NCBI GenBank assembly: GCA_026421205.1
Contig: JAPKBM010000006.1
Location: 1-64,000 of the forward strand
Direction: 5' to 3'
DNA from: Planctomycetota bacterium
GTDB taxonomy: Bacteria; Planctomycetota; UBA1135
DNA: 64,000 nt
The position numbers were made by a program, and so were the translations under genes. Below the pieces are notes generated by a model that saw only the letters and a program-made list of their open reading frames with translations, had not been told where the DNA came from and did not search any database. Within the stretch, counting starts at the first letter, position 1. Each line of letters begins with the position of its first letter. Positions 46,648 to 62,808 of the stretch are shown here, in pieces.

Positions 46648-47432
46648 GCGGTTGCTTCTAGGCTGAGTGGCCCCAATGGCGGGGCAATATGTACGCACAC
46701 GTTCTGGTTGAGGACGGGTCGAATCGTTTGCAGGGCTTTTTCGGGCGTGTTATTTTCCTTGCTCAGGTGGGCTAAAACCAAAGTATGTAGGCTTGGGCCT
46801 GCAGCTTCCTGAAGGAGGTCGGCCGTTTGCTGATTGGACAAGTGGCCCTCCGGCCCTGAAACGCGGTCTTGCAAAATACGCGGGTAGGGTCCGTCTCGAA
46901 GCATAGTGAAATCGTGATTGGCTTCGAGAACGAGAAGGTTGAGGGAGTGAAGGTGGGGGCGGAGGACGTCGGCGGTTCCTAAATCCGTAAAGTACCCCGC
47001 ACGTGCGTTCTCCGTTTCAAAGAGAAATCCGAAGGTAAAGCCTGCGTCGTGAGGGAGTTGGATTGGAGTGATGGACAAAGGGCCGACGGAAAAAGGAACT
47101 TGGTCTTGGATGGAACGATGGTCAATCTTTCGCCGCTCTCGCTCTTTTTTTGAAAGGTAGCTTTTACTACCAAAAGATTCGTCATGGGCATAAAGCGGTA
47201 CCCGGGCGCGTGCTGCTACTGGGACGACATTTTTACTGTGGTCCGCATGGTGGTGGGTCATCAAAACGGCGTCAATTTGTGTGAGAGATTCGCCGCAACG
47301 TTCGGCTAGTAACCGGCCTGTACGCTGTGGAATACCGCAATCCAATACAACGCGAACTTTTTGATTTCCTTGCCCCGCTGTGACCAAAGTACAGTTTCCG
47401 CTAGAGCCACTTGCGAGGACATGAACATGCAT
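46629..47432 (-). CDS. Metallo-beta-lactamase-fold hydrolase (YycJ/WalJ-like)
   Basis: 267 residues. [12 protein letters not shown] near the N-terminus and the metal motif THHHADH, with later FTDLG and LEANHD and a final LAHLSKENN, match the YycJ/WalJ branch, suspected to be exonucleases that affect cell-wall and DNA-repair functions. The protein is soluble. TAGGCT lies 6 nt before the ATG, and no ribosome binding site is seen. Confidence 0.9.
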
Positions 47433-47438
47433 TTGGAC

Positions 47439-47444
47439 AGCCTA
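47439..47444 (-). promoter_or_regulatory. Putative -10 element of the MBL-fold hydrolase gene (leaderless)
   Basis: TAGGCT on the reverse strand ends 6 nt before ATG 47432. It lies 3 bp from the extended -10 of the divergent CHAT gene. Confidence 0.35.
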
Positions 47445-47447
47445 GCG

Positions 47448-47456
47448 TGTTATACT
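47448..47456 (+). promoter_or_regulatory. Extended -10 promoter of the CHAT gene
   Basis: TGT-TATACT is a good extended -10 element. Transcription would start near 47463, inside the adjacent inverted repeat, giving a leader of about 25 nt. Confidence 0.5.
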
Positions 47457-47459
47457 GCT

Positions 47460-47480
47460 AAAGTCGCCTATTGCGACTTT
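47460..47480 (+). promoter_or_regulatory. Perfect inverted repeat at the CHAT transcription start
   Basis: AAAGTCGC and GCGACTTT are separated by CTATT, a perfect 8-bp inverted repeat directly after the -10 element and 6 nt before the ATG. It could be a repressor operator or a 5' hairpin limiting translation. Confidence 0.5.
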
Positions 47481-47486
47481 GTTCTC

Positions 47487-50400
47487 ATGCCGTTTTCCGT
47501 TTTCCACTTTTTCTTTGTTCTCGCTCTTCCCATGCAAGACGCAGGGGAAGTTGAAATTTTTGTGGACACGCCTCACATGGGGCAAGTTTCGGAGACTTCT
47601 CCGGTTCAGACGAAGGGGCTTCCTAAGGGCTACGATCAAGTTGCGCTCCCCCGCGCCGAAGGTTTTCTCTTTATCGTGCCTCAAGCGGGATCGTGGACCA
47701 TCCGCCTCCATTCTCACTATTTTGATTCCTACCTCTTGATTCAAAACGCGCAGGGGAATTTTTTAAGTACTTCATTCGGAGACGGCCTCTCGCGGGATGA
47801 TGACGGCTGGTATGGCTTTCACTCCCAAATACTTCTCTCAGATTTGGACGCAGGGCAACGGCTTTCTATTCGGGCTATTGCCCTTCACGGTAAAATAGGT
47901 GCCTTTACTTTACACATTGAAAAAGGTGCGCCAGAGCCCCTTCCTCAGCGATCGGCCGAAGCTTTGCGACTTAAAGACTTGCAGGAGGGCATTGACAGGC
48001 TAAGTGAAGCTGAGGGTAAGGAAAGTGCCTTTGTTGCTTTGGCACGCTATCGCCTAGGAGAGGCACTTTTTCAACATGGCCAAATGACAGAGGCGCGGTC
48101 CGAACTCAATCTTTCATTAGCTGCGCTAGAGCGAGAGGCTGGCCTTGGGTCTTTTGATGCTTCGCGGACGAGAAGCTTGTTGGCGGATGTATGTCTGCAG
48201 TTAGGCGACAATTCAGAAGCACGCAGATTATGGGAAGATAATCTCAAGCATGAAGGAGAGGACCCCTTTACTCTTATTCAGTTAGGTCGCTTGCACCTTG
48301 ATCAGAAGAATCTTTTGGATGCGGACGAGGTTTTAATGCGAGCAGCGCTTTGGATGGCCAATAACAAGTCTGAAAACATTGACTTGAGTCTTATGTTGAA
48401 TTTGGAATTGGGTCGTCTCAGCAAGGAACGTTATGCATGGGATGCGGCCCTTTTTTATTGGGAAACCGCATTAGGGTTAACCAAGCGTTCGATTGATTTT
48501 TCACCTTTTGCTGCTTTGGAATTGCGCCTTGCAATGGGCGAAGCATGTCAACACTTGGGCCAGCATGAGAAAGGTTACCCTCTATTGGAGGAGGCCGCAG
48601 TTTTGGCGAAGCAGTTGTTTGGAGAGAGGCATCCTAAGGTTGCTAAGGTCCTCGGGTTTTTAGGTGTCGCCGCGCAGGTTAAGGGGAACCCAGCCGCCGC
48701 CGTTGAATTCTTTCAAGAAGGTAAAGGGATTTTTCGAGATGCTGGAGTGCTTGAAACAAGTAAGGAGTATCTAGCAACGTTGCAGGATTTAGCCTCTGCA
48801 GAGCTTCAGACGGGCGCGTTGGACGAGGCCTTGAAGCATGCCTTGGAGACAGTTGCGGGCGGTGAAACTCGCCTTTGGTCTCTGTTTGCCGGTTTGAGTG
48901 AATATGAGCGACTTGCTTTTGCACGTTTCCATGCAGCAAAAATGGCTCTACTACTTTCCGTAGATGCAGAAGATGATCAGTCAGCTTTGATGCAATATGA
49001 AGCTCTCTTGCGCTGGAAGGGGCAAATCTCCCGTAGTCTTTCTGCAAGCCAACGGCATTTAACGCCAGAAGCTCGCGCAGTTTATGAACAAATGAAGGCC
49101 TTGGATGGTCAATTGTGGCAGGCTGTCCTTGGTGCTGAAGAAAATCCAATAGAGTCACAAAGAATTGCGGCTGAGTATGCTAGCTTGCAGCGAACATTTT
49201 TAAATTTGACTGGTACTGGTCGACCCGAAGTCCCGAGTTTTTCCGATGTGTCGCAATCATTGCCAACCAATACTGTGGCAGTTGACTTTTATGTCTACCC
49301 TAGATATCGGAAATCTTTTGACGATGGAAGTCCATGGGGCAATTCTGAATTAGTGGCTTGGATTTTCACAGCTGGTCAAGCTGTTCCGAATCGTGTTGAT
49401 TTGGGTCCTGTTGATGATTTGCAGAGTGAGGTTGAATCTTACTTGGATTATTTAGTGCCAACTCGTGGCGGACGTGCGTTGGGAGCTAAAAAGGATCGCC
49501 CAGGGACATTTCTGCGAAAAATTTTATGGGATCCACTGAAGCCTTATATTGGGGAGTCGTCGATGGTCTTTGTTTCGCCTGATTCTTTTCTTGCAACGCT
49601 TCCTTTAGAAACCTTGCCCGTGGGAGAGGAGGAGTTCCTTATAGAACAGCATGCCTTCGTTTATGCGCAAGATATGGTTTCTTTGGCTTTGCAGGAGGAG
49701 TTGGCAGAATCAAGAGAGGGAGCACTATTTGTGGTGGGTGGAGTTGCTTATGACGGTGAAGTGAAAGAGCAAGAGGAGGGCGCTCTAAGTCCCGAAGTTC
49801 AGGAGGCTCTGGAACAGCTAGAAAAGTTTAAAGAGATGGGTCTATTCACTGAAGAAGAGTTTGAGGCAAAAAAAGAAACACTGTTAGGGAAAAGTAATCT
49901 TACTCGAGGTGGTCGTCGCGGCGACGCAACGACGTTCACGAAAAAGTGGGACGAACTTTCTGCAACACTCGGTGAAGCTAAATCGATCCGAGGACTATTT
50001 AAAGATCAGCGTTGGTCTTCAAAGCCACTTTTGTTGACAGGAGAGCAGGCTTCTGAATCACGTGTGAAGGACGAGTTGCCTAATTATCGTTATATCCATT
50101 TAGCTACACATGGTTTTTTTGAGCCAGAGGAATTGCCAAACTTGGCTGCGCAGGTTTCTAAGAGTGATCCTCAGGCGATGGCCGCATTACGCGCACAGCG
50201 TCGTTTAGTCGGTCGTATGCCTGGACTTTTATCTGGGCTGGTTTTCGCGGGAGTTCGTTATGGTGAAACAGGTGATGAAGATGGATATCTCACTGCTGAG
50301 GAAGTGGCTAGCTTGGATTTGACACAGTGTGATTTAATGGTTCTTTCTGCATGTAACACGGCTACGGGAGCTCAGCGTGCGGGAGAAGGGATGATGGGGC

Positions 50401-50639
50401 TTCGTCGTTCTTTCCGACAAGCCGGGGCGCGGACAGTGCTGTCTTCTTTGTGGCCCGTGGACGATGAAGCTACTGCAGAGTTGATGAAATCTTTTTACCT
50501 TAAACTATGGGAAGGTGGTCAATCCAAAGTGGAGGCTTTGGCTGAGTCTCAGCGTGAAATGCTACGAAAGCTTCGTATTGAAGGTCGGCAGAGCCCTCGG
50601 CTGTGGGGCGCTTTTGTTCTTTCTGGTGATTGGCGTTAA
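47487..50639 (+). CDS. Secreted TPR-CHAT protein (caspase-like protease) with SHOCT-like insert
   Basis: 1050 residues from ATG 47487. A signal peptide (FSVFHFFFVLALPMQDAG) leads to a pre-peptidase-like beta domain (SWTIRLHSHYFDSYLLI), then TPR repeats at about 160-490. The C-terminal CHAT domain has the caspase-type dyad: H875 in HLATHG and C956 in LSACNT, followed by GEGMMGLRRSFRQAGA and SLWPVDDEAT. Between the first CHAT strand and the His, residues 773-801 (ALEQLEKFKEMGLFTEEEFE, then AKKETLLG) read as a SHOCT-like helical hairpin. TPR-CHAT proteins are common in Planctomycetota; targets are unknown. The second half looks more A+T rich than its surroundings. Confidence 0.88.
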   Translation: MPFSVFHFFFVLALPMQDAGEVEIFVDTPHMGQVSETSPVQTKGLPKGYDQVALPRAEGFLFIVPQAGSWTIRLHSHYFDSYLLIQNAQGNFLSTSFGDGLSRDDDGWYGFHSQILLSDLDAGQRLSIRAIALHGKIGAFTLHIEKGAPEPLPQRSAEALRLKDLQEGIDRLSEAEGKESAFVALARYRLGEALFQHGQMTEARSELNLSLAALEREAGLGSFDASRTRSLLADVCLQLGDNSEARRLWEDNLKHEGEDPFTLIQLGRLHLDQKNLLDADEVLMRAALWMANNKSENIDLSLMLNLELGRLSKERYAWDAALFYWETALGLTKRSIDFSPFAALELRLAMGEACQHLGQHEKGYPLLEEAAVLAKQLFGERHPKVAKVLGFLGVAAQVKGNPAAAVEFFQEGKGIFRDAGVLETSKEYLATLQDLASAELQTGALDEALKHALETVAGGETRLWSLFAGLSEYERLAFARFHAAKMALLLSVDAEDDQSALMQYEALLRWKGQISRSLSASQRHLTPEARAVYEQMKALDGQLWQAVLGAEENPIESQRIAAEYASLQRTFLNLTGTGRPEVPSFSDVSQSLPTNTVAVDFYVYPRYRKSFDDGSPWGNSELVAWIFTAGQAVPNRVDLGPVDDLQSEVESYLDYLVPTRGGRALGAKKDRPGTFLRKILWDPLKPYIGESSMVFVSPDSFLATLPLETLPVGEEEFLIEQHAFVYAQDMVSLALQEELAESREGALFVVGGVAYDGEVKEQEEGALSPEVQEALEQLEKFKEMGLFTEEEFEAKKETLLGKSNLTRGGRRGDATTFTKKWDELSATLGEAKSIRGLFKDQRWSSKPLLLTGEQASESRVKDELPNYRYIHLATHGFFEPEELPNLAAQVSKSDPQAMAALRAQRRLVGRMPGLLSGLVFAGVRYGETGDEDGYLTAEEVASLDLTQCDLMVLSACNTATGAQRAGEGMMGLRRSFRQAGARTVLSSLWPVDDEATAELMKSFYLKLWEGGQSKVEALAESQREMLRKLRIEGRQSPRLWGAFVLSGDWR

Positions 50640-51191: not shown

Positions 51192-53693
51192 TTACTGTGG
51201 TGTGTAGGACTGGAAAGTTGGCAGTTGACCATTTGGCCCAGCCACATCCCCGCCTCTAACCGTGACGGTTCCATCTTCGTTGGTCGTTACTGAACCGCCC
51301 GAATGGCTCGAGTTAGTTCTGTCTTCGCTTTGATATTGATTGCCTGCTGTTTGCCCAGCATTAAAGGTGTAGTGCTTCATCCCTGTGCCACGGAGAACTC
51401 CAACTCCGCCCAAGATGTGAACCGTGTAGTTGCCATTAATGTCAGGCCGTAGCAATGAAGCCGTAGATGTGAAGCCTATTGGTTCAGGCAATGGGTCAGT
51501 GGCGACAGTGCCACCAAAAGTAAATCCACCTTGTCCATCATCAGTGGTTGCCGTTATGTCGTATAGTTCACTGCTAGCGGTGAAATCATAGTCCTCACCA
51601 TTCAAAATACTAGTGACACCTCCTGCAAGAACATATTCTGTTGCCGTGGCACGATTCTTTGAGAAGAAAGCGCGTGCTTCTTGCATTGGAGTCCATTCGG
51701 TGTAGTTCAATGTCTCAACATTGAATGAGCAGACGCGATTTGTGACGTCTCCATTGGTTAGTCCGCCAAAGAACAGCCGAAGGCCTGTGCCGTGCCCAAT
51801 CCCTGCGATAGCAACAGCAGCAATGCGGTAGGGGAGGTTAGGTCCAGCAGTCCATGAGTCCGTAGCTGGGTCATAAATTTCAGAGCTTTTTGTATTACGT
51901 TTGGTCATGGTGCCTAGATTCTCGACCTTACCATTGTTATTTTTTCCAGTAACTCCGCCAGCGACAAAGATTCTTCCGTCAGGAAGCAAAAAGCCAAAGT
52001 GATGTGAACGTGGAGTTGACATTGGTGCAACTTCAGTGACTTCTGAAGTGTAGGGGTTAAAGATTTCAGCCCTTCGTGTGATGCCCGTCTGGTTTGGATC
52101 ATCTGGATGGGGGCCAACCATCCCACCTGTGATAAAGATTCTTCCATCAGGAAGTCTTTGGAGTTTATGGTGAGCTCGCGCGACGTTCATGCGGGCAATT
52201 AAGGTATTCTCCCCTGTTTGGAGGTTCATGTCCCAAATTTCATTTGTGGCAATAACAGGCTCACCCGATTTAGGGTAAAGATGATTTGCGCCCCCAAAGG
52301 TCAATAGCTTTTCGACGCCTCCATTAATGCCAAATTGATAGACTTTTGTGCGCATTCCAGGTGTTTTAGGTCCATTTGCAAAGCTTTCTTCTTCTCCCCA
52401 GTTCCCAGGCATGTTTGGGTAAACGGTAAACACATTTGTAAAGTCAGCAAAGAACTCCTCTGGTGTTCCAGCGTTGGGATCTCCAGTAAATGCTTGCAGG
52501 TAAAAAGCCGCCCCAACTTGTAGATTCCCACCAGCCATGCCAGGTCTAATCATTTCTGAGAAGTTGAATTCACCGTTTGCGTCAATTGTTCCTAGTGGCT
52601 GCCTAAGATCTCCATAGATGAATGGCCCTTGAACCGCTAAAGTGTCGTTTCCTTCACTTGATATTTCATTCAGACTCGTGTCGGTTCCGCGTACTGTGCT
52701 TCCAACGATGTATACCAGCCTTCCAGGTGTTGCATCCTTTAGGACGACTTCAACGGGCTTTCCAATTGCTGTTCCATAGACCTGTAAGGAAGCATCTTGA
52801 TTGCCAGTGATGAAGTCATTGTGGTCATAGAGCACAAGCTGTCCAGTTGAGGTATTGCTGTTCGGCTGAGCGATATGTGCAAGAAGACTGAGACCGTTGG
52901 TATTACGCGTGTCATGGTGAATGCTAAGCCCCGTTGGGGTCCCAGGAAGATGTGAATTGAAACCGCGTCCTGTAACTTGATTGGCTTCAGGGTCGAATTC
53001 TATAAACTTGACGTCGTTTGCACCGAATCGACAGCCAATCCAGAGTGTGCCCGTTGCCGCATCCAAATCCATTGCAAAGGCATTTAGCCCACCAATATCT
53101 ACAGGGGCCTGCATCGGATCACCCATGCTATTGAAACGGTGTAATCGTGTGTTTGTATTCACGAGGTTATACATTTCGGCAACCCACATGTCACCGTTAA
53201 CTTTTTTGCTCGATGCGATACCGACGACAGCACCTTGTACGATATATGCTGATAGATCAACATCATTAACGATGCTTAGGCTTTCTGTTGAGTGATTGTA
53301 ATTCAGACTGTAAGCGCGTAACGCTGTATCTGAAACACCTTGAAGAAGCGCAGCTTCTGTATTAAATGTCAAGTCACTAAGACGGTTGTTAATGCCAATT
53401 ACACTTAGTTTGTGGTAACGCCTTATTGTTCCATCTAGCTCTAATTGGATAATGTAGGGAGTATTACTTTGAATTAGGACCGCGGAGACCCAGAGAAATC
53501 CCATGCCTTGCGATGAGCCGATGGTGACGAAGTCTGTATTTTCTGCCGCGTCCCATGGTCCAGCGATTACGTCTCCCATTGCCGGAATTTGAGTCCAAGG
53601 AGTAGCGTCAATATTCTGTTGGGCAGATATAGTATTTGCCGTTAACAGCGAGAAGCTAAATACGGCGAACAAAAGGGAAGGAAATTGTTTCAT
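51192..53693 (-). CDS. Secreted Kelch-repeat beta-propeller protein
   Basis: 833 residues with a signal peptide (LLFAVFSFSLLTANTISAQQ). The N-terminal 330 residues look like a first propeller (GSSQGMGFLWVSAVL, then ATGTLWIGCRFG). A middle domain contains GPFIYGDLRQPLGTIDANGE, like the beta-sandwich that ends many marine planctomycete secreted proteins. From about 460, Kelch-like repeats appear: LPDGRIFITGG, LPDGRIFVAGG, LRLFFGGL, EYVLAGGV and VHILGGVG. This is similar to galactose-oxidase-type propellers, but no copper ligands could be assigned. The gene looks more A+T rich than its flanks. Function unknown. Confidence 0.85.
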   Translation of the reverse strand: MKQFPSLLFAVFSFSLLTANTISAQQNIDATPWTQIPAMGDVIAGPWDAAENTDFVTIGSSQGMGFLWVSAVLIQSNTPYIIQLELDGTIRRYHKLSVIGINNRLSDLTFNTEAALLQGVSDTALRAYSLNYNHSTESLSIVNDVDLSAYIVQGAVVGIASSKKVNGDMWVAEMYNLVNTNTRLHRFNSMGDPMQAPVDIGGLNAFAMDLDAATGTLWIGCRFGANDVKFIEFDPEANQVTGRGFNSHLPGTPTGLSIHHDTRNTNGLSLLAHIAQPNSNTSTGQLVLYDHNDFITGNQDASLQVYGTAIGKPVEVVLKDATPGRLVYIVGSTVRGTDTSLNEISSEGNDTLAVQGPFIYGDLRQPLGTIDANGEFNFSEMIRPGMAGGNLQVGAAFYLQAFTGDPNAGTPEEFFADFTNVFTVYPNMPGNWGEEESFANGPKTPGMRTKVYQFGINGGVEKLLTFGGANHLYPKSGEPVIATNEIWDMNLQTGENTLIARMNVARAHHKLQRLPDGRIFITGGMVGPHPDDPNQTGITRRAEIFNPYTSEVTEVAPMSTPRSHHFGFLLPDGRIFVAGGVTGKNNNGKVENLGTMTKRNTKSSEIYDPATDSWTAGPNLPYRIAAVAIAGIGHGTGLRLFFGGLTNGDVTNRVCSFNVETLNYTEWTPMQEARAFFSKNRATATEYVLAGGVTSILNGEDYDFTASSELYDITATTDDGQGGFTFGGTVATDPLPEPIGFTSTASLLRPDINGNYTVHILGGVGVLRGTGMKHYTFNAGQTAGNQYQSEDRTNSSHSGGSVTTNEDGTVTVRGGDVAGPNGQLPTFQSYTPQ

Positions 53694-53818: not shown

Positions 53819-54610
53819 ATGAAGGAAGAAACGTGGTTTTATTCGAAGGACGGTGGCGCTTCTTCTGGAGTCCCTGAGAGCGAAGTCGCCTTTCTTTTGG
53901 AGTCCCGTGAACTTGGGCCGCATACTTTGCTTTGGAAGGACGGTATGGAGGAGTGGAAACGGGCCGATCACTTACCTCGTTTTGCATCCTCCTTGAGAAG
54001 TAAACCGGAAGAAGGGGTAGAGGAGCTTGGTCCAGTGGCGGAGAAGGTTAAAAGTGAGGCTGAGGAGCCACTACAACCCCACCCTTCTTTTCAGGTAAAG
54101 GTACAGGCTACGTCAGTTCAGCCTTGGACCCGCTATTTCGCGCGCAGTTTGGATCTCAGCTTGGCTCAAACAGTATATTTTGCGTTTGGAGGCCAAAGTG
54201 CCATCCTGTTTGAGGTTTCTGTGATGGCAAAATTTGCCGTTCCATTTTTGGCAAGTTGGGTGCTGGCGGAAACTGTTCTCCTAACTTATTGGGGGACCAC
54301 ACCTGGGAAATGGTTGCTGGGCATTGAGATTTCCACGGAGCGGGGAGAGAGGTTGCACTGGAAGCAAGCCCTGCGCCGAAGTGTGGAAGTGTGGATAAGA
54401 GGAATGGCTTTGGGCATCCCTCTTTTGACTCCTCTTGCACAGATTCATGCATATAGCTTGCTGACGCAGCAAGGGGTGACGCCTTGGGACAGAATCACAC
54501 AGACGGTCGTGCGGCATAAACAGGTACCGATTTTTCGTTGGTTCGTCGTTTTGCTTTTGCTATACGGTGTGTACAGCAACCTAAACTTGTTGCTGTCTGA
54601 GTCTTTTTAA
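53819..54610 (+). CDS. GYF_2 plus RDD domain membrane protein
   Basis: 263 residues from ATG 53819, the start of the recognisable GYF_2-type domain (WFYSKDGGASSGVPESEVAF, then LWKDGMEEWKRADHLPRF). After a charged linker comes an RDD-type membrane domain with the opening PWTRYFARSLDL (the R and D positions of the family) and four or five helices, including TTPGKWLLGIEI. This fusion is widespread in bacteria with unknown role. The frame is open upstream to 53702, but that part is not domain-like. Its stop overlaps the convergent cytochrome stop by 4 bp. Confidence 0.85.
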   Translation: MKEETWFYSKDGGASSGVPESEVAFLLESRELGPHTLLWKDGMEEWKRADHLPRFASSLRSKPEEGVEELGPVAEKVKSEAEEPLQPHPSFQVKVQATSVQPWTRYFARSLDLSLAQTVYFAFGGQSAILFEVSVMAKFAVPFLASWVLAETVLLTYWGTTPGKWLLGIEISTERGERLHWKQALRRSVEVWIRGMALGIPLLTPLAQIHAYSLLTQQGVTPWDRITQTVVRHKQVPIFRWFVVLLLLYGVYSNLNLLLSESF

Positions 54611-56787
54611 TCGGACTGAGTCCACCAGCGTTGCGCAAGCCATCGGCGGCGACGATCTACTTCGGCGGAATCTAAGGAACTTGGAGGGGAAGCGTCGGCA
54701 GATTGAATAAGCTGTAGGCTGAACCGTGCTTCATCGGAAAGATTCACGTTTTCCAAGACTTGTTCCATGGCGACTATGGAGGAGTTTTGCAGGGGAAGCG
54801 TGGCGCAACGCAGTAAAGCATCTGCAGCAGCCGTTTGCTCCTCTCGATTCCCTTGGGTTAACCATGGCAAGAGGAGTGCTTCGCCCTCGGGAAGGCCGAT
54901 GGCACCGACGGCCTCCATACGGCGTGTTCGCGTGGGCGGCGGCTGAATGAATGCCTTGAGGAAATCCGTACGGTCAATTTCCGTGCGTTGAATCCAACGA
55001 CCGAAAGGTTCTCCAAGCCAGGCCATCGTTTGCAAACAGTGTTCTTGCATATAGAGGGAATCCTGGTGAATCCCGCTGAGCAATGAAGGATAGATGGCGG
55101 GCGACATTCGTGTGAAGACAAAACGTGCGTCATCGACCGGCCGGAGAGGTTGGCTGAGAAATCGATGAAGCATGGATTTCATTTCCCCGAGAAGTTCTGG
55201 GCTTGCAATCCGCGAAACGTAAGAGGAGGGTTTTAGGAATCTTTTTTTGTCCCAGTTTTCCTTCTGAGACTGAAAATAGATTTGTGCGGTTTCCAAGGTC
55301 CAAGTGGTGTTTTGGAGTAAAGTCTGTACCTGTGGAAAGCGTTCAAAGGTCATTACTTGAAGAAGCCCGGCGAGTCCGGCGCCCTCTCCAAGTTTGAGAA
55401 GGCCAACGGCCAGAGAAAGCACGTTGTCGGGGTCCTTCTCATATTTTAGGCGCAGAATCATGCGAGGGATTCCTGCTTCATAGGGCTGCTTCGCCCACCA
55501 GGCGTAGGCCCATCGCTGAATATCAAGCGGCGTATTTTTTTCTTCCACCCAATGCAAAATGGCTGCCATGCGTTTCGTCGGGTGGAGCTCCTGCAACTTA
55601 CGCAAGGCTTTTCCGGTGGGGGATGCGAGGCGGACATTTCCGTTAGCGAAGGAAGCCTCCCAAAGTTCTTTCCAAGCCAATATTTCTTCTCGCTCTTTTT
55701 GCGAAAGTACCGGGAGAGTTTTACCGAAATCTCTGACAAGGGTGGGGTGGCCTTGGCGAGAAGGGCCTTGGTTGATGCTTGGCGGCGGCGCTAAATCTTT
55801 GGAGATCGACGTCTTCCCCTCACCGGGAAGAAGAGAGATGGTTTGAAGGACGGAAGCCTCGTCATCCGGCTGAAAAGGGTTGGTTCGGTAGAGGAGCCGG
55901 ACTTCCACAGCGTCAGGCGGAACGAGGGGATGCAGTGTAGTTTCCCAAGTCTTTCCGGCGGGGAGTTGCGTGTTATTTAAGTCTATTTCATCCCGATAAG
56001 GGTCACGAAAGCGGTACACCTGTTGCCACTCTCCCCAAGTTTTCTTTTGCATGGAACGCCATTGCAGATCTGCCGCCCGGGACCGCTCATCCGTAGGGAA
56101 ATTATGACCGGCTCCATGGTTGGTTAGTTGGAGATGCACTTGACCCTTGAGGAAACTAGCCTCTAAAGCCACGGCTTCTTGCAGGCTTGCCAAGTCATGC
56201 GCGGCCGGAAAAGAGTGAACGCGCCCTCGTCGGCCCCCTTCGCGAAACGTATCCTTCATGTGGCAAGAAAGACAATTTTCTTTTTGAAGTTCTTCGGGTG
56301 CCGCGCGCCATTGTTCTACGGTTCCGTGTTGATTGTGGCAAGACCCACAGGTGTCCACTGACGTCAAACGAAGGTCGGTGGTCGGTGCGCATGCAGCATC
56401 CGTTCGTGGATTCAATTGCGCCGACGCCACACCACCTTCTGGTCGCGAATGGCAAGAGAGACAGTCAACACCCAGAGAGCGATCCGACTGGCGAGCAAGA
56501 ACGCGTTCCCCCGGCTTGAATTGCAAGACTGGTCGGGGGGCATGGCAGGCTAGACATTCTTCATTTAAGAAGTTTTGACTTAGCCTGCGCACTTCAGGGT
56601 TTTGAAACGCAAAGGCATGGTGAGATTCTTGCCACTCCTCCCATACGGCGGGGTGACAGCTTTGGCAATCCTGCGAGGAAATCGGTGGGGCCACCTCCGT
56701 GTGCATCGGGGGAAGGACTAAGCGAAAGAGTGCCGCGGTGCCAAGCCCTGCGAGGAGCAGGGGGAGAAGGCGTTGGAGCTGCATCAT
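54607..56787 (-). CDS. Pentahaem c-type cytochrome with long helical C-terminal region
   Basis: 726 residues from ATG 56787, which overlaps the ABC ATPase stop as ATGA. An N-terminal anchor (LLPLLLAGLGTAALFRLVL) precedes five CxxCH haem sites at 41-45, 78-82, 109-113, 147-151 and 172-176. Distal histidines (ESHHAF, VHSFPAAHD, GAGHNFPTDERSR) fit cytochrome c554-like packing. A beta domain follows, then about 350 helical residues resembling HEAT repeats. It is periplasmic and membrane bound. It could shuttle electrons or reduce a substrate such as iron, given its operon; that is inference. Confidence 0.85.
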   Translation of the reverse strand: MMQLQRLLPLLLAGLGTAALFRLVLPPMHTEVAPPISSQDCQSCHPAVWEEWQESHHAFAFQNPEVRRLSQNFLNEECLACHAPRPVLQFKPGERVLARQSDRSLGVDCLSCHSRPEGGVASAQLNPRTDAACAPTTDLRLTSVDTCGSCHNQHGTVEQWRAAPEELQKENCLSCHMKDTFREGGRRGRVHSFPAAHDLASLQEAVALEASFLKGQVHLQLTNHGAGHNFPTDERSRAADLQWRSMQKKTWGEWQQVYRFRDPYRDEIDLNNTQLPAGKTWETTLHPLVPPDAVEVRLLYRTNPFQPDDEASVLQTISLLPGEGKTSISKDLAPPPSINQGPSRQGHPTLVRDFGKTLPVLSQKEREEILAWKELWEASFANGNVRLASPTGKALRKLQELHPTKRMAAILHWVEEKNTPLDIQRWAYAWWAKQPYEAGIPRMILRLKYEKDPDNVLSLAVGLLKLGEGAGLAGLLQVMTFERFPQVQTLLQNTTWTLETAQIYFQSQKENWDKKRFLKPSSYVSRIASPELLGEMKSMLHRFLSQPLRPVDDARFVFTRMSPAIYPSLLSGIHQDSLYMQEHCLQTMAWLGEPFGRWIQRTEIDRTDFLKAFIQPPPTRTRRMEAVGAIGLPEGEALLLPWLTQGNREEQTAAADALLRCATLPLQNSSIVAMEQVLENVNLSDEARFSLQLIQSADASPPSSLDSAEVDRRRRWLAQRWWTQSD

Positions 56788-57431
56788 GAAAGGACCCCAT
56801 CCTCTAAATGCATCACTCGCCCACCGAGTTGCTCCGCTTCGGCTAGGGTGTGGGTTACAAGGAGAACTGCAGTCTTTGACTCCTCCAAGATTTTTTGCAG
56901 CCATTCTTGGCTCTGTGTTTTGGATGTTTCGTCCAAGCTGGCGTACGGCTCATCCAGTAGAAGAAGCTCTGGCCGGAGAGCCAGTGCGCGTGCGAATGCA
57001 AGGCGTCGGGACTCTCCGCCCGAGAGTTGGGCGGGCTTTTTTTGACAATGCTCGTTGAGCGAGACACAGGTGAGCGCATCCATGGCTTGTTCTTTCGCCA
57101 TTGCTTTACTTCGCTTTTGCGCGCGGAGCGCGTCGTAGACATTTTGAAATACAGTCCGTGTGGGCCAGAGCCCTAAGTCTTGAAAAACAAATTGAATTCC
57201 TCGTTGCCAAGGCGGCGTTCTCAGCGCGGGTTTCCCGTGCAGGAAAAGTTGGCCTTCATCCGGTGTCTCTAGCCCTGAAATAATTCTCAGAAGCGTCGTT
57301 TTCCCACATCCAGAGCTTCCGAGGATGGAAATGCGCTCTTCGACTTGTATGGTAAGGCACACTCCTTGAAGGACTTTTTGCCCTGCAAAACTCTTGTGAA
57401 TGTTGCCAAGTTGGGCGAGGGGTTCAATCAT
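56784..57431 (-). CDS. ABC transporter ATP-binding protein, FbpC/PotA-like importer class
   Basis: 215 residues from ATG 57431. Walker A is GSSGCGKTT, signature LSGGESRRLAFARALAL, Walker B LLLLDEPYASLD and H-loop THTLAEAE. The length is short for FbpC, which normally has an extra C-terminal regulatory domain; that domain is absent here. The gene overlaps the permease gene by 8 bp and the cytochrome gene by 4 bp, so all four genes look co-translated. Confidence 0.92.
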   Translation of the reverse strand: MIEPLAQLGNIHKSFAGQKVLQGVCLTIQVEERISILGSSGCGKTTLLRIISGLETPDEGQLFLHGKPALRTPPWQRGIQFVFQDLGLWPTRTVFQNVYDALRAQKRSKAMAKEQAMDALTCVSLNEHCQKKPAQLSGGESRRLAFARALALRPELLLLDEPYASLDETSKTQSQEWLQKILEESKTAVLLVTHTLAEAEQLGGRVMHLEDGVLS

Positions 57432-58992
57432 GGCGAGCTCGGTGGAATGCCGCATAAATCATCAGCGGAAGGAAAAGAATCAGTACCATTAAAATCCCGA
57501 AGGCGGCAACAAAGTTGTCTCGGGCAAAGTGAAGGGCATTAAAGTAGCGGACGGCGGCACTTGCATTGGAAGCGGGCAAGAGTATGGCCAAGTCCAGTTC
57601 ACGGACCGAAAAAGCTAAAACCAAAGCACCTGCAAGGAGCCACGCGGCTTTGTGCGGGCCAACGTGATAACGGAAAATCCGTGTGATGAGAGACACTCCT
57701 GCAAGAGTTGCCGCTTCCTCTTGCTCTGGGGGATTCCGTCGGAATCGTTCATGGAGAAGAAACACAGCAATGGGTAAGAAGCGACCTGCGTAAACTAAAA
57801 TAGGCAAGCCGATACTTGAATAAAAAAAGTGCGAGGAAGATTGGTTGAAAACATAAATAGCACTGATCCCTAACCCCAAGGCAGGCGTCAAGAGAGGAAG
57901 GCTGAGGAAAAGTAAAATGAACTGTTTTTTTCTGGAGGAGGAATGAAGAAGTTTGTGAGCCCAAAAAGGCGCGAGGACTAAAGTGATTCCGCCGGCTGCC
58001 AGTCCTATGCCCAGGGAACGGAGGAGGTCGGCCCGACCACGATTGAAAGCAGCGGAAAAGCCTTCCGCAGAACGAGAAAGCCAAGTCCCATCAGAGAGTG
58101 GGCCCCCTGCACCAGTCTCCCAGAGGATGCGGGAAAGGGGAAGAAGGAGGAGGAAAAGGGCCCCGATCAATGCCAGGAGGGTGGCCCCTATACGGTAATA
58201 TTTTTTTGTGAGTCGAAGCGGTTTCGCCCGCCGACCTGTTCCAAAATCTGGAGCACCCCATTTCCTTTCTACTTGCATACTTCCCGCTAAAACGATGAGG
58301 CCAAGGAGCACTAAAGGGACCGAAGCTCGGGCGCCGGCCGTCCAATCCTGATCTCTGAATTGATGGAAAACTTCGGCGGCGTACACAGAAAATTTATCTC
58401 CTACGGTTGCGAAGTAATCAGGAACGGCGAAATCGGTGCTGGTAAAGATGAAGACTAAGGAACTTCCAAAAACTGCTCCTGGAATGGCTGTGCGAAACAT
58501 CTCCCAAAGCGCACGCCGAGGGCCACCAGCCAAGAGTGCAGCTTCATGGCTGGCGGCGGATTGATTTTGCAAACTTCGTGCCGCCAAGAGTGCGGGTAAA
58601 GGGGCGTATGCCAATCCTAAAGTAAATGAGGTCATCCAAGCAGCGTCCCACCCAGTTAATCCGTGCCAGGCTTGTGCAAGAAGAAGGGGGGGGAGTAAGA
58701 GAGGCAGGGGGGCGCAAAGCTTGAAGTAAAACGCTCCTGGTATTTGGAATCTCCAAACCAAGATTGCGTAGGGCAGACCCACCAGAAAAGCGAGTGCGGC
58801 AGCTGTTCCTGAAAGTTGTGCCGTGTCTTTCAGAAGATTTTGGATGCGCGGATCGAGAAGCGTTTGAAGTGAGCTTCCGTCAAAAAGTGGCTTGAATAAA
58901 GCAGAAAGGGGAAGAATGGAAATTACCAAAGTGACGAGCAAAACTAGAAACCACCACGGGCTTGTAATGCGAGTCAGTCGGGCGAGGGGCAT
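57424..58992 (-). CDS. ABC importer permease, FbpB-like fused two-domain form
   Basis: 522 residues with about 12 membrane helices in two similar halves. Each half has an EAA-type coupling loop: EAALLAGGPRRALWEMFRTAI and EEAATLAGVSLITRIFRYHV. This fused permease is typical of ferric-iron, thiamine and some anion importers (FbpB/ThiP type). It starts one base from the binding-protein stop. Confidence 0.92.
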   Translation of the reverse strand: MPLARLTRITSPWWFLVLLVTLVISILPLSALFKPLFDGSSLQTLLDPRIQNLLKDTAQLSGTAAALAFLVGLPYAILVWRFQIPGAFYFKLCAPLPLLLPPLLLAQAWHGLTGWDAAWMTSFTLGLAYAPLPALLAARSLQNQSAASHEAALLAGGPRRALWEMFRTAIPGAVFGSSLVFIFTSTDFAVPDYFATVGDKFSVYAAEVFHQFRDQDWTAGARASVPLVLLGLIVLAGSMQVERKWGAPDFGTGRRAKPLRLTKKYYRIGATLLALIGALFLLLLPLSRILWETGAGGPLSDGTWLSRSAEGFSAAFNRGRADLLRSLGIGLAAGGITLVLAPFWAHKLLHSSSRKKQFILLFLSLPLLTPALGLGISAIYVFNQSSSHFFYSSIGLPILVYAGRFLPIAVFLLHERFRRNPPEQEEAATLAGVSLITRIFRYHVGPHKAAWLLAGALVLAFSVRELDLAILLPASNASAAVRYFNALHFARDNFVAAFGILMVLILFLPLMIYAAFHRARHD

Positions 58993-59988
58993 TTAACGTA
59001 AAAACAGTTTTTTGAACTCTGGGCTGAGCGCCTCTAGCTCCGTAGCCACAGCCTCCCAATCAATCGTTAGCATGGCGAAGTCAATATGAGGCTGAGGTCG
59101 ACCGAAAGGGACTTCCACGCCAGGCCGCAGAGGGATTTGTTGAGAACGGCTTTTGGCAAGGTAACTTTCTACCGAGGCCGAGGTGACAAAATCAATGAAT
59201 CGCTCTGCGGCTGCTCGATGTGGCGCGCCGTTTAAAATACAAACGGTGTTGGGGATGACAAGGACCGCTGGAAATTCTTTGGATTGCCCAGGGTAGTGTA
59301 CGGAAACGTCGAAGCCATTATCTTGCGCAGCAGCGGCGTCGTCGGTGTCCGTTAAACACCACGGAAAATCTTTTTCGCACACACGGCGCATGGCGTCGGC
59401 ATTGCCGCTGGTGATGCCCAATCCAGAATCCCGTGCAGTTTTAAGCCAAGTCAATACAGCCTTGCGTCCGAAAAGTGTGGACCAAACAGCAAAATGCGTG
59501 AGGGTTGTCCCGGTGAGTGGCGCAGCCATGGCGCCAACCGAGTTCACCGGGCTTTGCCCGATTTCATGGACCAAAGTTGGGAATTCTTGCGTCTCGGATT
59601 GATGCAAAATCACACGCGCGCGTGCAGCAAAGCCGATCCAGTGGTGCTCCGGGTCTCGAAATTCCTTCGGGATTCCTTGAGTTTGTTCCGAAGAATAGGC
59701 CGAAGTCAACCCAGCGCGTTTTAAGCGAATAGTGTGCGCCGTTTCGTTATTCCAGAAGACGTCGGCATAGGGATGTTTTCTTTCCGCAAAGATGCGATTT
59801 ACTAAGCCGACCGTTTTGTTTCTTTCGACATCAAAGTGTGCTTCCACATGAAGACCGGTCTCTTTTTCAAAAAGTGCAATAATGGGTTCCGAATGCACTT
59901 GATCCAAAGAGCAGTAAACCACTAAGTCCGCAGGCTTGGAGCAAGCTCCAATCGCCAAGAGAGCCAGCAGGGGGGGGGCGAGTTTCAT
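58993..59988 (-). CDS. ABC importer substrate-binding lipoprotein, FbpA/iron(III)-like
   Basis: 331 residues. Lipobox LLAIGAC places C16 as the lipid anchor. LVVYCSLDQVHSEPIIALFEKETGL is the opening of extracellular binding family 1 proteins of the FbpA/AfuA type. Later marks are ADVFWNNET, DTDDAAAAQ and FPAVLVIPNTVCILNGAPH. Two adjacent tyrosines typical of iron coordination are not clearly present, so phosphonate, thiamine or another ligand remains possible. It is the first gene of the operon; CATAAT about 20 nt upstream may be its -10 box. Confidence 0.85.
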   Translation of the reverse strand: MKLAPPLLALLAIGACSKPADLVVYCSLDQVHSEPIIALFEKETGLHVEAHFDVERNKTVGLVNRIFAERKHPYADVFWNNETAHTIRLKRAGLTSAYSSEQTQGIPKEFRDPEHHWIGFAARARVILHQSETQEFPTLVHEIGQSPVNSVGAMAAPLTGTTLTHFAVWSTLFGRKAVLTWLKTARDSGLGITSGNADAMRRVCEKDFPWCLTDTDDAAAAQDNGFDVSVHYPGQSKEFPAVLVIPNTVCILNGAPHRAAAERFIDFVTSASVESYLAKSRSQQIPLRPGVEVPFGRPQPHIDFAMLTIDWEAVATELEALSPEFKKLFLR

Positions 59989-60081
59989 CGTTTTACTTTT
60001 GCAAGTATTATGCCAAGAGTACTGGCGAGGGACTCTGATAGATGTTCCCTGATTGCCCCATGGCGGCCTATATTTATTAAC

Positions 60082-61563
60082 TTACCACTCAACGTAGCCG
60101 AGGGCTTGGAGCTCCGCGAGCCGCTCTGGGGAAAGCTGACGGATGTTTCGAATTGCTGGCGCCAGTCCGTACTCTGCGCGTGTATCCGCACAGAGTTTCC
60201 TCCAAGTTTCGAGGGTTTCAATGACTTGTTTCAGGAAGGCTTGGCCCGTGGGAGTTCCGACCCTATTCTTGTGCTCCCCGGGGTCAGTCTCCAAGAGGTA
60301 TGCTTCGGGCCGACGGTTTGAATTAGGAAAAAGCATGGCCTTATTCTTCCCCGTTCGAAAGGCCATTTGTTCTTCAGGCCAATTCGTTTCTCCAATGACA
60401 TTCTGCGTGTCTTCTTGGGGGGGCAAGGCACTTTGAAAATTGAGTGCACGCCCCATGACAGAGTTTGGAATAGGGATGCCACACAGCTCCAATAGACTTG
60501 GCATGAGGTCCAAAAGTTCAATATTGTCTGGACGGCGAAGACCACCGACACCGTTGGGCGTGCGCACAAGGAAGGGGACATGCAAAGTATGGTCATAGAC
60601 TTGATGATGCCCATATTGACCATGTTCCCAAAACTCTTCTCCGTGGTCGGATGTGACCAGAATCACGGTATTCTCCCAAAGTTCTTGCTCTTTCATCCAA
60701 GCCACAAGATCTCCAAAGACGGCATCCGTCAATCCAATCTCTGCGTCGTAGAGTGAGATAAGAAAGTTTAAATCTTCCGAATCCGGTGCGCCTTCCCCTT
60801 CCTTTGGGTGGTGTTTTTTGTAAAATCTTTGCTGAATCACGCGAATAGCATTCTTGACCTGATTCTTTTCTGAAAACTCTAAGGCGCCTTCCCACGCAGT
60901 TCGATATTTCCCTTGGTAGTCTGGATCCGCAAACTTCTCAACGAACTCAGACTCTGGGATATAAGGCGTGTGGACTTGGTACGTGTGAAGAAACATGAAA
61001 AAAGGTTGTTCTTCATTTCTTTTTTCTAACCAAGCCTTCGCAGTAGTAACACGGTTTCGGACCCCGCTAAATCCCGAATCAAAATGATCAAAGCCTTGTG
61101 CAAACCCACGGGACTCTGTGACATTTCCGCCGTCCGTGATGGCAACGGTGGCGTATCCCGCATTTTGAAAAGACTCTGCCATCGTTTCGGCCTTGTCGGC
61201 CAACCGTGGGAAGATGGGTTCTCCTTTTTGGTCAAGAGTTCGGTTCCAAACCCCGTGAACCCGTGGGTAGGTGGACGTGAAAATACTGCCATGAGATGGA
61301 GAAGTCGAGGATGCGGCCGCCCATGCGAACTCATAGAGGGTGCCCTCTTTGGCAAAGGCATCAATGTTGGGCGAGGTGTCCTTTTCATACCCATAACAAC
61401 CCAAGTGGTCCGCCCGCAGTGTGTCCACTAAGAAGATGAGAACATTGGGAGGTGGAGCGGCGTCGGCCGACGGCGTCTCTGGAGCGGGGGAAGGAGTCTC
61501 TCCGCAAGCTTGGGCCAAGCCCAGGAGCAAGGCGAAAAGGAATCTGTGAGGGGTTCGTGGCAT
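60082..61563 (-). CDS. Sulfatase-fold (alkaline phosphatase superfamily) lipoprotein with Thr/Ser instead of Cys
   Basis: 493 residues from ATG 61563; a GTG at 61572 adds three residues and lies 8 nt after a TATCCT box. The lipoprotein signal ends in LLLGLAQAC. The fold shows NVLIFLVDTLRADHLGCYGY, SPNIDAFAKEG, SPSHGSIFTSTYPRVHGV, SDHGEEFWEHG and a C-terminal ALGYVEW. The formylglycine motif CxPxR is replaced by a TSPSH version, so maturation to a true sulfatase is not possible by that route. A phosphatase, phosphodiesterase or phosphotransferase role is likelier. It is divergent from the aminotransferase gene. Confidence 0.88.
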   Translation of the reverse strand: MPRTPHRFLFALLLGLAQACGETPSPAPETPSADAAPPPNVLIFLVDTLRADHLGCYGYEKDTSPNIDAFAKEGTLYEFAWAAASSTSPSHGSIFTSTYPRVHGVWNRTLDQKGEPIFPRLADKAETMAESFQNAGYATVAITDGGNVTESRGFAQGFDHFDSGFSGVRNRVTTAKAWLEKRNEEQPFFMFLHTYQVHTPYIPESEFVEKFADPDYQGKYRTAWEGALEFSEKNQVKNAIRVIQQRFYKKHHPKEGEGAPDSEDLNFLISLYDAEIGLTDAVFGDLVAWMKEQELWENTVILVTSDHGEEFWEHGQYGHHQVYDHTLHVPFLVRTPNGVGGLRRPDNIELLDLMPSLLELCGIPIPNSVMGRALNFQSALPPQEDTQNVIGETNWPEEQMAFRTGKNKAMLFPNSNRRPEAYLLETDPGEHKNRVGTPTGQAFLKQVIETLETWRKLCADTRAEYGLAPAIRNIRQLSPERLAELQALGYVEW

Positions 61564-61580
61564 CGTCTTCACGCCAGTTT

Positions 61581-61586
61581 AGGATA
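61581..61586 (-). promoter_or_regulatory. Putative -10 element of the sulfatase-fold gene
   Basis: TATCCT on the reverse strand ends 8 nt before GTG 61572 and 17 nt before ATG 61563. If transcripts start at 61572, the GTG would be the true start. Confidence 0.3.
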
Positions 61587-61614
61587 GGGTTCCCCAAAGT
61601 TCAGGACCTCTTCC

Positions 61615-62808
61615 ATGACACAAACACTTTCTCCTCTCCTTCTTGCAGACCGCATGGCGCGGCTTGGCACGGAAACCGCTTTTGAAGTTCTCGCCCAGTC
61701 AAAGCAGTTAGAGGCTGAGGGCAAAGATATTATTCATTTGGAGATTGGAGAGCCAGATTTTGGCACCCCACAGAATATTGTGGATGCGGGAAAAAAAGCT
61801 TTGGACGATGGGTTTACGCACTACGGCCCTGCTGCCGGCTTGCCGCAAGCAAGGGAATGTGTGGCCGATTACGTAGGCAGAACCCGAGGGATTTCGTGCA
61901 ACGCGGATGAGGTGGTCATTGTGCCGGGTGGAAAGCCCACCATGTTTTATGCCATTTTGGCTTTAGCCGGGCAGGGAGATGAGGTGATTTATCCTAATCC
62001 CGGGTTCCCGATTTATGAATCAATGATTCAGTTCGCGGGCGCCACGGCGGTGTCTTGCCCAATCCGCTCTTCCAATGCCTTTGCACTGGACCCCGAGGAC
62101 GTTATTTCCCGAATTACGGCCAAAACGAAACTGGTTATTTTGAACTCTCCGGCAAATCCAACAGGCGGTGTCACGCCACAGGCCGAATTAGATCGAGTCT
62201 TGGCTGCCTTGAAAGATCGGCCTGACATTTGGATTTTGTCGGACGAGATTTATAGCCGGATTTTGTATGACGGCGCGGAGCACTCCAGCCCTATGTCTGA
62301 CCCAGAGATTAGAGACCGTGTAATTTTGCTTGATGGCTGGTCCAAAACGTATGCCATGACGGGTTGGCGTATGGGCTTTGGCGTCATGCGACCCGACTTG
62401 GCAAAGCAAATTGCCAAACTCATGGTGAATTCAAACTCTTGTACGGCATCTTTTTCACAAATTGCAGGCATGGAAGCCTTGACCGGAGACCAGGCTCCTG
62501 TGGAAAACATGGTGAAAGAGTTTGATAAGCGCCGTCGATTTATCGTGGATTTATTGAATGATATTCCGGGTGTGCACTGTCATTTGCCGAAGGGCGCTTT
62601 TTATGTGATGCCAAGTATTGAGGAACTCAACATTCCCGCGAAGGAATTGCAGCATAAAATTCTTTTTGAAGGAGGCGTTTCCTGTCTTGCCGGTACTGCC
62701 TTTGGTGCGGAAGGAGAAGGCTTTCTTCGCTTTAGTTATGCGAATTCCATGGCGAACATTGAAAAAGGGATTCGCCGTGTCCGCTCCATCATCGAAAACC
62801 TCGCATGA
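61615..62808 (+). CDS. Class I/II pyridoxal-phosphate aminotransferase (aspartate/alanine type)
   Basis: 397 residues. The fold I aminotransferase pattern is clear: [52 protein letters not shown], and the PLP lysine in [14 protein letters not shown]; the C-terminal FLRFSYANS includes the substrate carboxylate arginine. It probably moves amino groups between aspartate, alanine or an aromatic amino acid and 2-oxoglutarate; the exact donor cannot be read. It overlaps the threonine aldolase gene by ATGA. Confidence 0.93.

What the first reader, a model, noticed from the sequence alone, without database searches (positions are those of the whole stretch)
54607..59988. Ferric-type ABC importer operon ending in a pentahaem cytochrome
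Binding lipoprotein, fused permease, a short ATPase and a 726-residue pentahaem cytochrome are joined by overlaps or 0-bp gaps. The cytochrome's long helical C-terminal region is unusual. Co-translation suggests a link, for example periplasmic redox processing of iron before uptake, or maturation of a metal cofactor. The ATPase lacks the usual regulatory tail.
Basis: partly seen in the sequence, partly recalled or inferred. Interest (0 to 1): 0.55.

Follow-up and report, generated by a model that had tools for sequence, protein, structure and literature searches.

The report
Metal importer paired with five-haem cytochrome
A bacterial uptake pump related to iron importers is encoded together with a five-haem electron-carrying protein, and many related bacteria keep the pair, some even where the genes have moved apart, which may mean that the cargo is chemically reduced or oxidised during uptake.

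Summary
In detail: four minus-strand genes at 54607-59988 (binding lipoprotein, fused permease, short ATPase, 726-residue pentahaem protein) abut or overlap. In the window's order the genes are collinear in all 40 loci fetched (picked because both end genes lay on one contig). The helical tail is a HEAT-repeat protein, a separate gene in relatives and mostly a lipoprotein; the window carries a fusion. Of 392 Planctomycetota genomes 241 have the binding protein and 136 the cytochrome; 118 have both. In 14 genomes fetched because the pair was split, the ATPase stays beside the cytochrome and the permease lies elsewhere. The binding protein has the ferric-binding fold but Asp-Asp in place of the iron-binding tyrosine pair, so 'ferric-type' describes ancestry, not proven cargo. 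The cytochrome has the fold of Thermochromatium pentahaem c552 (Z 21.6), with five haem motifs plus five further almost invariant His/Cys. In other lineages the transporter sits beside ChrB_C, a chromate-response domain. Best reading: an ABC importer for a hard metal ion coupled to a periplasmic redox protein. Cargo unproven; FeoB is present too.

The parts
58993..59988 (-). Substrate-binding lipoprotein, ferric-binding-protein fold
   Evidence: SBP_bac_8/6; AF2 pLDDT 94.5, best Foldseek hit iron-bound HitA 6ivy TM 0.82
59338..59352 (-). TDTDD motif (aa 213-217); D216-D217 take the place of the FbpA iron ligands Tyr195-Tyr196
   Evidence: Alignments to ferric-binding proteins (FbpA numbering recalled); D214 131, D216 130, D217 130 of 131 distinct sequences; letters read
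57424..58992 (-). Fused two-half ABC permease, 522 aa
   Evidence: weak PhnU2/molybdate-type NCBIfam hits; two homologues hit BPD_transp_1
56784..57455 (-). ABC ATPase, 223 aa, no C-terminal extension
   Evidence: ABC_tran 3.3e-33
54607..56787 (-). Fused cytochrome-HEAT gene, 726 aa
   Evidence: one other fusion among the 40 order loci (L052)
55783..56787 (-). Cytochrome part (aa 1-335): N-terminal helix, five-haem region, beta-sandwich
   Evidence: AF2 pLDDT 88.9; VIA-align Z 21.6, rmsd 3.0, 268 aligned to 5ze8
54607..55782 (-). HEAT-like helical part (aa 336-726), a separate gene in relatives
   Evidence: tblastn maps; HEAT_2 in three homologues; lipobox by a simple pattern in 25 of 40 called homologues
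56653..56667 (-). haem motif 1 CQSCH
   Evidence: 94 of 95 (one gap)
56542..56556 (-). haem motif 2 CLACH
   Evidence: 95 of 95
56449..56463 (-). haem motif 3 CLSCH
   Evidence: 95 of 95
56389..56391 (-). Cys133, invariant cysteine outside the haem motifs
   Evidence: 95 of 95 distinct sequences
56335..56349 (-). haem motif 4 CGSCH
   Evidence: 95 of 95
56260..56274 (-). haem motif 5 CLSCH
   Evidence: 95 of 95
60082..61572 (-). Sulfatase-family lipoprotein upstream, possibly first gene of the transcript
   Evidence: Pfam Sulfatase; found directly upstream in only some loci (L052, L053, L058, L061 and, in part the same genomes, L093, L096, L097, L102)

Best explanation
This is a redox-coupled ABC import module. 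The binding lipoprotein captures a hard cation, most likely a transition metal, in the cleft where ferric-binding proteins hold iron, but with a carboxylate site (D29, E82, D216, D217) in place of the His/Tyr-Tyr site, beside a retained anion-binding loop (GTT 160-162, N196). It hands the ion to the fused permease and ATPase. The pentahaem cytochrome, held at the outer face of the membrane by its N-terminal helix, passes electrons to or from the cargo (for instance Fe(III) to Fe(II), or release from an oxidised mineral or complex) before capture; the HEAT-repeat part is a scaffold that keeps cytochrome and binding protein together. Shown: gene order and co-retention, predicted folds, conserved residues, lipoprotein signals. 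Inferred: that the cargo is a metal, that these acidic residues touch it, the direction of electron flow, that cytochrome and transporter act on the same substrate, that the helix stays as an anchor, and the scaffold role.
For: Order level: of 61 genomes 52 have the binding protein; in 47 it shares a contig with the best cytochrome hit a few kb away, in the other 5 the two lie on different contigs. The 40 loci fetched from these all have SBP-PERM-ATP-CYT in that order, HEAT in 36. Genome collection: of 38 loci with SBP, permease and ATPase called and at least 4.5 kb downstream, 34 have the cytochrome; of 55 counted by SBP alone, 42; of all 80, 47. Phylum: 118 of 136 cytochrome genomes have the binding protein against 123 of 256 others (Fisher p 7e-15, uncorrected for kinship). 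Dispersal: 14 of 14 loci fetched because the cytochrome lay away from the SBP keep the ATPase next to it (L172-L185). The best permease match in each of these 14 genomes is at a third place: 13 at E 2e-94 to 5e-128; G104 only 3e-62, within the range of other permeases, which reach 2e-71. Other gene orders: CYT-SBP-PERM (L187-L190), divergent (L186). Metal-type cargo: ferric-binding proteins are the nearest solved relatives; Asp takes the places of His9, Tyr195, Tyr196 in 129, 130, 130 of 131. Export: lipobox on SBP (Cys16 in 118 of 131) and on 25 of 40 HEAT homologues.
Against: No ligand is shown. Acidic residues also suit polyamines, sugars or aminophosphonates, and FbpA's Glu57 is Asn81 here. 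NCBIfam's best models for the SBP are phosphonate binders, though far below cut-off. FeoB is in 36 of 41 genomes, the window's included, so iron uptake does not need this module. No Rfam metal riboswitch in 54000-61700 or in seven relatives. 18 of 136 cytochrome genomes lack the SBP and 123 of 241 SBP genomes lack the cytochrome at E 1e-30. Of 55 collection loci with room, 13 lack the cytochrome, ten of them with neither cytochrome nor ChrB_C in the locus, among them two Hydrogenedentota loci (L149, L165) that have the whole transporter. Five SBP loci of family f72 (L192-L196) have neither cytochrome nor permease beside them; permease matches in the three of those genomes tested are weaker (1e-49 to 1e-53).
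Confidence: 0.45

Rival explanations
1. The transporter imports a small organic cation or zwitterion (polyamine, aminophosphonate, amine), and the cytochrome oxidises it or accepts electrons from its breakdown in the periplasm.
For: NCBIfam ranks 2-aminoethylphosphonate binders first for the SBP (45.5 bits in the window, 127.7 in L154) and PhnU2 first for the permease (39.8 bits against 593); proteins of the same fold bind glucose-6-phosphate or pyridoxal phosphate (4r73, 6wce).
Against: All those scores are far below the curated cut-offs; in the PDB searches ferric-binding proteins beat the phosphonate binder (139 against 89 bits; 95 against 46); no amine or phosphonate enzyme gene was noticed beside the module (by eye; only a few neighbours were run against Pfam).
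Confidence: 0.2
2. A chromate/oxyanion or trivalent-metal stress module: the cytochrome reduces a toxic metal and the transporter clears or senses the product; ChrB_C does the equivalent job elsewhere.
For: Residues in ChrB's C-terminal half affect its chromate response (PMC3817168, passages read).
Against: The window genome has no ChrB_C match; of 160 loci scanned, 11 have ChrB_C and none of these has the cytochrome; 14 of the 20 genomes are one family (f49), so events are few; importing a toxic ion makes little sense.
Confidence: 0.15
3. Housekeeping coupling: the importer supplies iron (or another cofactor metal) for cytochrome c assembly, and the cytochrome is merely a respiratory electron carrier that shares the transcript.
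For: Cytochromes need iron; co-transcription alone would give the operon (general knowledge; no call).
Against: Co-retention of this cytochrome with the ATPase directly beside it where the SBP lies elsewhere is more than supply of a common cofactor predicts; FeoB is already present.
Confidence: 0.15
4. The SBP is an ordinary Fe(III)-binding protein that uses carboxylates instead of tyrosines, with no functional role for the cytochrome.
For: Fold and nearest relatives.
Against: Tyr pair absent throughout; conserved cytochrome linkage.
Confidence: 0.05

Closest known systems
FbpABC / HitABC-type ferric ABC importers
   Same: Binding-protein fold (6ivy TM 0.82), retained anion-loop residues and N196, one binding protein, a fused permease and a single ATPase (operon layout of FbpABC recalled)
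   Different: His9 and Tyr195-Tyr196 replaced by Asp29 and Asp216-Asp217; cytochrome and HEAT protein in the operon; short ATPase in part of the order
Pentahaem cytochromes: Thermochromatium tepidum c552 (5ze8), ExtKL, Gsu2801 (grouped in PMC11976967, passages read)
   Same: Five haems plus C-terminal beta-sandwich over 268 residues, Z 21.6; profile E 4e-21
   Different: Invariant His154 aligns to Arg in c552; the stretch with Cys133 is not aligned, so that residue could not be compared; ABC transporter in the operon
MccSep multihaem selenoprotein (9wt8)
   Same: Profile match E 6e-10; shared GH..P loop
   Different: In the printed alignment the residue that is X in 9wt8 and A in the U325A mutant 9wt9 falls in the loop held here by D-E-R (aa 233-235); E234 is Glu in only 71 of 95
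Metal importers with a redox partner (EfeUOB, FtrABCD; recalled, not searched)
   Same: A redox protein co-encoded with a metal importer
   Different: Different transporter class and different redox cofactor
ChrB_C (PF09828) loci
   Same: The same SBP family, mostly with permease and ATPase, near a different candidate metal-handling partner
   Different: No cytochrome in the 11 such loci scanned; other lineages

Membership tests
Ferric-binding-protein (FbpA) importers | Ferric-binding-protein fold of the SBP | tested here: met
   profile
Ferric-binding-protein (FbpA) importers | Adjacent tyrosine pair as iron ligands | tested here: not met
   Asp at 216 in 130 and at 217 in 130 of 131 distinct sequences (one Asn, one Glu); no Tyr
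Ferric-binding-protein (FbpA) importers | Binds Fe(III) and transports iron | not testable with these tools
   needs protein or cells
Phosphonate (PhnS) or thiamine importers | SBP above the curated NCBIfam cut-off | tested here: not met
   45.5 bits against 310 (PRK15046) and 20.5 against 93.4 (sfuA); 127.7 against 310 and 53.4 against 93.4 for L154
Pentahaem cytochrome family (c552 / ExtKL / Gsu2801) | Five CXXCH haems and the c552 fold | tested here: met
   (motifs); Foldseek 1.6e-12; Z 21.6, rmsd 3.0, 268 aligned
Pentahaem cytochrome family (c552 / ExtKL / Gsu2801) | Above the NCBIfam cut-off for ExtKL | tested here: not met
   19.1 bits against 250: not ExtKL itself
Pentahaem cytochrome family (c552 / ExtKL / Gsu2801) | Haem ligation and potentials | not testable with these tools
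Cytochrome c554 (four-haem) | Four haems in the c554 fold | tested here: not met
   five CXXCH; only a local Pfam Cytochrome_C554 match over aa 41-114
ABC import ATPase with regulatory C-terminal domain | C-terminal domain after the nucleotide-binding domain | tested here: not met
   223 aa, ends after the NBD; 16 of 40 order loci have 330-379 aa, but Pfam names no C-terminal domain in the three long ones scanned (L105, L133, L155)

The most novel reading that the evidence does not exclude
A redox-gated ABC metal importer: a five-haem cytochrome whose fifth distal ligand or catalytic residue is the invariant Cys133 (five haems, and five further almost invariant His/Cys: H57, C133, H154, H191, H228) reduces the cargo directly at the binding protein, so that oxidation state decides what enters. 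ChrB_C would be an exchangeable second solution for the same step, making that 'chromate' domain a metal-processing partner more generally.
Probability: 0.2. Interest if true: 0.8.

Novelty: new variant of a known kind. Interest (0 to 1): 0.55.

Why it matters
One operon, found in much of a phylum in several gene orders and as separate loci in some families, ties a multihaem cytochrome to an ABC importer; if the link holds, it is a direct handle on redox steps in bacterial metal uptake. It occurs in the complete chromosome record of Planctomycetes bacterium Pla163 (L107; the record title does not mark it as a MAG), so the link may be testable in a strain. It also warns that annotation as 'ferric' is unsafe for a large SBP family that lacks the iron ligands.

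Tried and rejected
Alignment A4 (fused protein with separate CYT and HEAT rows) was useless because MAFFT laid HEAT rows on the cytochrome, so only the cytochrome part was folded; the HEAT part has no model here. Longest-ORF calls were misleading in GC-rich loci and were replaced by tblastn maps. No riboswitch was found. The idea that the module replaces FeoB was tested and rejected; Nramp in 21 of 41 and ZnuA in 32 of 41 genomes gave no complementary pattern that I could see. The T. tepidum c552 paper is not held, so its haem ligation was not compared. The 50 rows shown by VIA-align include no NrfA, HAO or MccSep, which excludes nothing. Literature: ten searches, judged by titles and starts of abstracts, listed no paper on this gene cluster; the library holds only open-licence papers. 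The tree (quick method, 113 rows; rows near contig edges and rows at least 97% identical to a kept one were dropped first) needs at least 7 changes of the label 'cytochrome adjacent'; starred branches force only one, so several origins are not proved.
Full report
What is there. On the minus strand, 59988 to 54607, lie a binding lipoprotein, a fused permease, a 223-residue ATPase and a 726-residue protein with five CXXCH motifs, joined by a 0-bp gap and by overlaps of 32 (or 8, by start codon) and 4 bp. The window genome is a 2.15-Mb assembly estimated 88% complete; the window lies in its contig C11. A sulfatase-family lipoprotein ends 93 bp upstream and a convergent RDD/GYF protein overlaps the 3' end by 4 bp.

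The gene order is conserved. Of 60 relatives plus the window genome, 52 of 61 have the binding protein. In 47 of these it shares a contig with the best cytochrome hit a few kb away; in 5 (G009, G014, G019, G024, G050) the two are on different contigs. Of the 9 genomes without the binding protein, six (G032, G037, G040, G044, G049, G052) have only a distant cytochrome hit (33-36% identity, in frames of 750-1008 residues), G027 only a marginal one, G017 none, and G011 has the cytochrome 2.2 kb from a contig end. I fetched 40 of the 46 relatives' loci in which both lay on one contig; all 40 have SBP-PERM-ATP-CYT in that order and 36 a recognisable HEAT gene behind. ATPase and cytochrome overlap by 4 bp in 20 of 40.

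The helical tail. In relatives the part matching aa 336-726 is its own gene; of the 40 order loci only L052 (G006) is fused as in the window. Pfam finds HEAT repeats in the three homologues scanned, and 25 of 40 called homologues carry a lipobox by a simple pattern. The fusion therefore most likely joins two exported proteins.

Beyond the order. In 392 Planctomycetota genomes the binding-protein profile matches 241 and the cytochrome profile 136 at E 1e-30; 118 genomes have both (Fisher p 7e-15, not corrected for kinship). Some weaker cytochrome hits (E near 1e-35) are probably paralogues. Other arrangements exist: CYT-SBP-PERM-ATP (L187, L189, L190; L188 without a recognised ATPase), divergent (L186), and split. 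In 14 genomes fetched because the cytochrome was not beside the SBP, the ATPase is directly upstream of the cytochrome in 14 of 14. The best permease match is at a third place in all 14: strong in 13 (E 2e-94 or better), unspecific in G104 (3e-62; other permeases reach 2e-71). Many of these assemblies are in dozens to hundreds of contigs, so 'separate' is firm mainly in the less broken ones (G124 about 10 contigs, G189 about 20; in G217 SBP and cytochrome lie about 146 kb apart on one contig, in G252 SBP and permease about 790 kb). The retention of these proteins without close linkage is the strongest evidence that they work together. Against it, 123 SBP genomes lack the cytochrome at this threshold, and five f72 loci show an SBP with no partner gene recognised.

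Binding protein. The AlphaFold model is confident (pLDDT 94.5) and matches iron-bound HitA best. Profile and sequence searches of the PDB also put ferric-binding proteins first. Aligning to FbpA, HitA and VmFbpA (FbpA residue numbers recalled) puts H9 at D29, E57 at N81, Q58 at E82, and Y195/Y196 at D216/D217. Over 131 distinct sequences D29 is Asp in 129, D216 in 130 and D217 in 130; G160, N196, R123 and D214 never vary. So the anion-binding half is kept and the iron chelate is replaced by carboxylates. That favours a hard cation but does not prove a metal.

Cytochrome. The AlphaFold model (pLDDT 88.9) matches the pentahaem c552 of Thermochromatium tepidum over 268 residues (Z 21.6; the next rows, Z 8.4 and below, cover little beyond the beta-sandwich). 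Besides the CXXCH residues, C133 and H154 are invariant in 95 of 95, H57 and H228 in 94 and H191 in 93 of 95 (of these four misses three are gaps in rows L091 and L178, one is Pro in L080). Five haems need five distal ligands if all are six-coordinate; this set has five members, one a cysteine. A cable-bacteria paper groups c552-like, ExtKL and Gsu2801 proteins as a pentahaem family (PMC11976967, passages read).

Alternative partner. ChrB_C (PF09828) lies within 6 kb of the SBP in at least 20 of the 54 Planctomycetota genomes that have it (places; 14 of the 20 are family f49), and near the SBP genes in loci titled Bacteroidetes, Bacteroidales, Omnitrophota, Wallbacteria and Chthoniobacterales. 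A tblastn scan of 160 loci (L052-L211, some genomes present twice) finds ChrB_C in 11, none of them with the cytochrome. Residues of ChrB's C-terminal half were tied to chromate response by mutagenesis (PMC3817168, passages read). This supports metals or oxyanions as the theme but points away from plain iron.

Tests that went against iron. FeoB is in 36 of 41 genomes, the window's included. No metal riboswitch was found. NCBIfam's best SBP models are phosphonate binders, well below cut-off.

Verdict. A conserved module that my ten literature searches did not find described: FbpA-fold importer plus pentahaem cytochrome plus HEAT lipoprotein. That it is a redox-coupled importer of a hard metal ion is my best reading at 0.45; the cargo remains the open question.

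Noticed in passing
G013:C5:302113-302937, G005:C172:25074-25895, G007:C17:156430-157248, G021:C110:49533-50348, G016:C34:160996-161814, G001:C1:35185-36000, G002:C8:43312-44124, G003:C6:52675-53490, G011:C348:6929-7735, G024:C28:5134-5955: In ten genomes of the window's family a ZnuA-type metal-binding protein gene lies about 1.6-3.5 kb behind the module on the opposite strand; the window genome has no ZnuA match.
   Followed up: partly
L162:2177-7073: chrB, chrA, a DUF1259 gene and a LamG-like gene lead into SBP, permease and ATPase in a Chthoniobacterales contig.
   Followed up: partly
L209:4547-5158 (minus): A ChrB_C gene lies between the permease and ATPase genes of this transporter family.
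   Followed up: partly
window 47361-50639 (plus): 1092-aa ORF that reads like a TPR plus CHAT-type protein (by eye, no search).
   Followed up: no
window 51192-53693 (minus): 833-aa secreted protein with kelch-like repeats (by eye, no search).
   Followed up: no
L137: A contig titled Candidatus Kuenenia stuttgartiensis carries an SBP that is sister to L105 in the tree, away from the ChrB-linked f49 rows; possibly a mislabelled bin.
   Followed up: no
L077:12713-17501 (minus): Upstream of the SBP in this order member lie ORFs with 3, 18 and 1 CXXCH motifs (longest-ORF calls), apparently a separate multihaem cluster.
   Followed up: no
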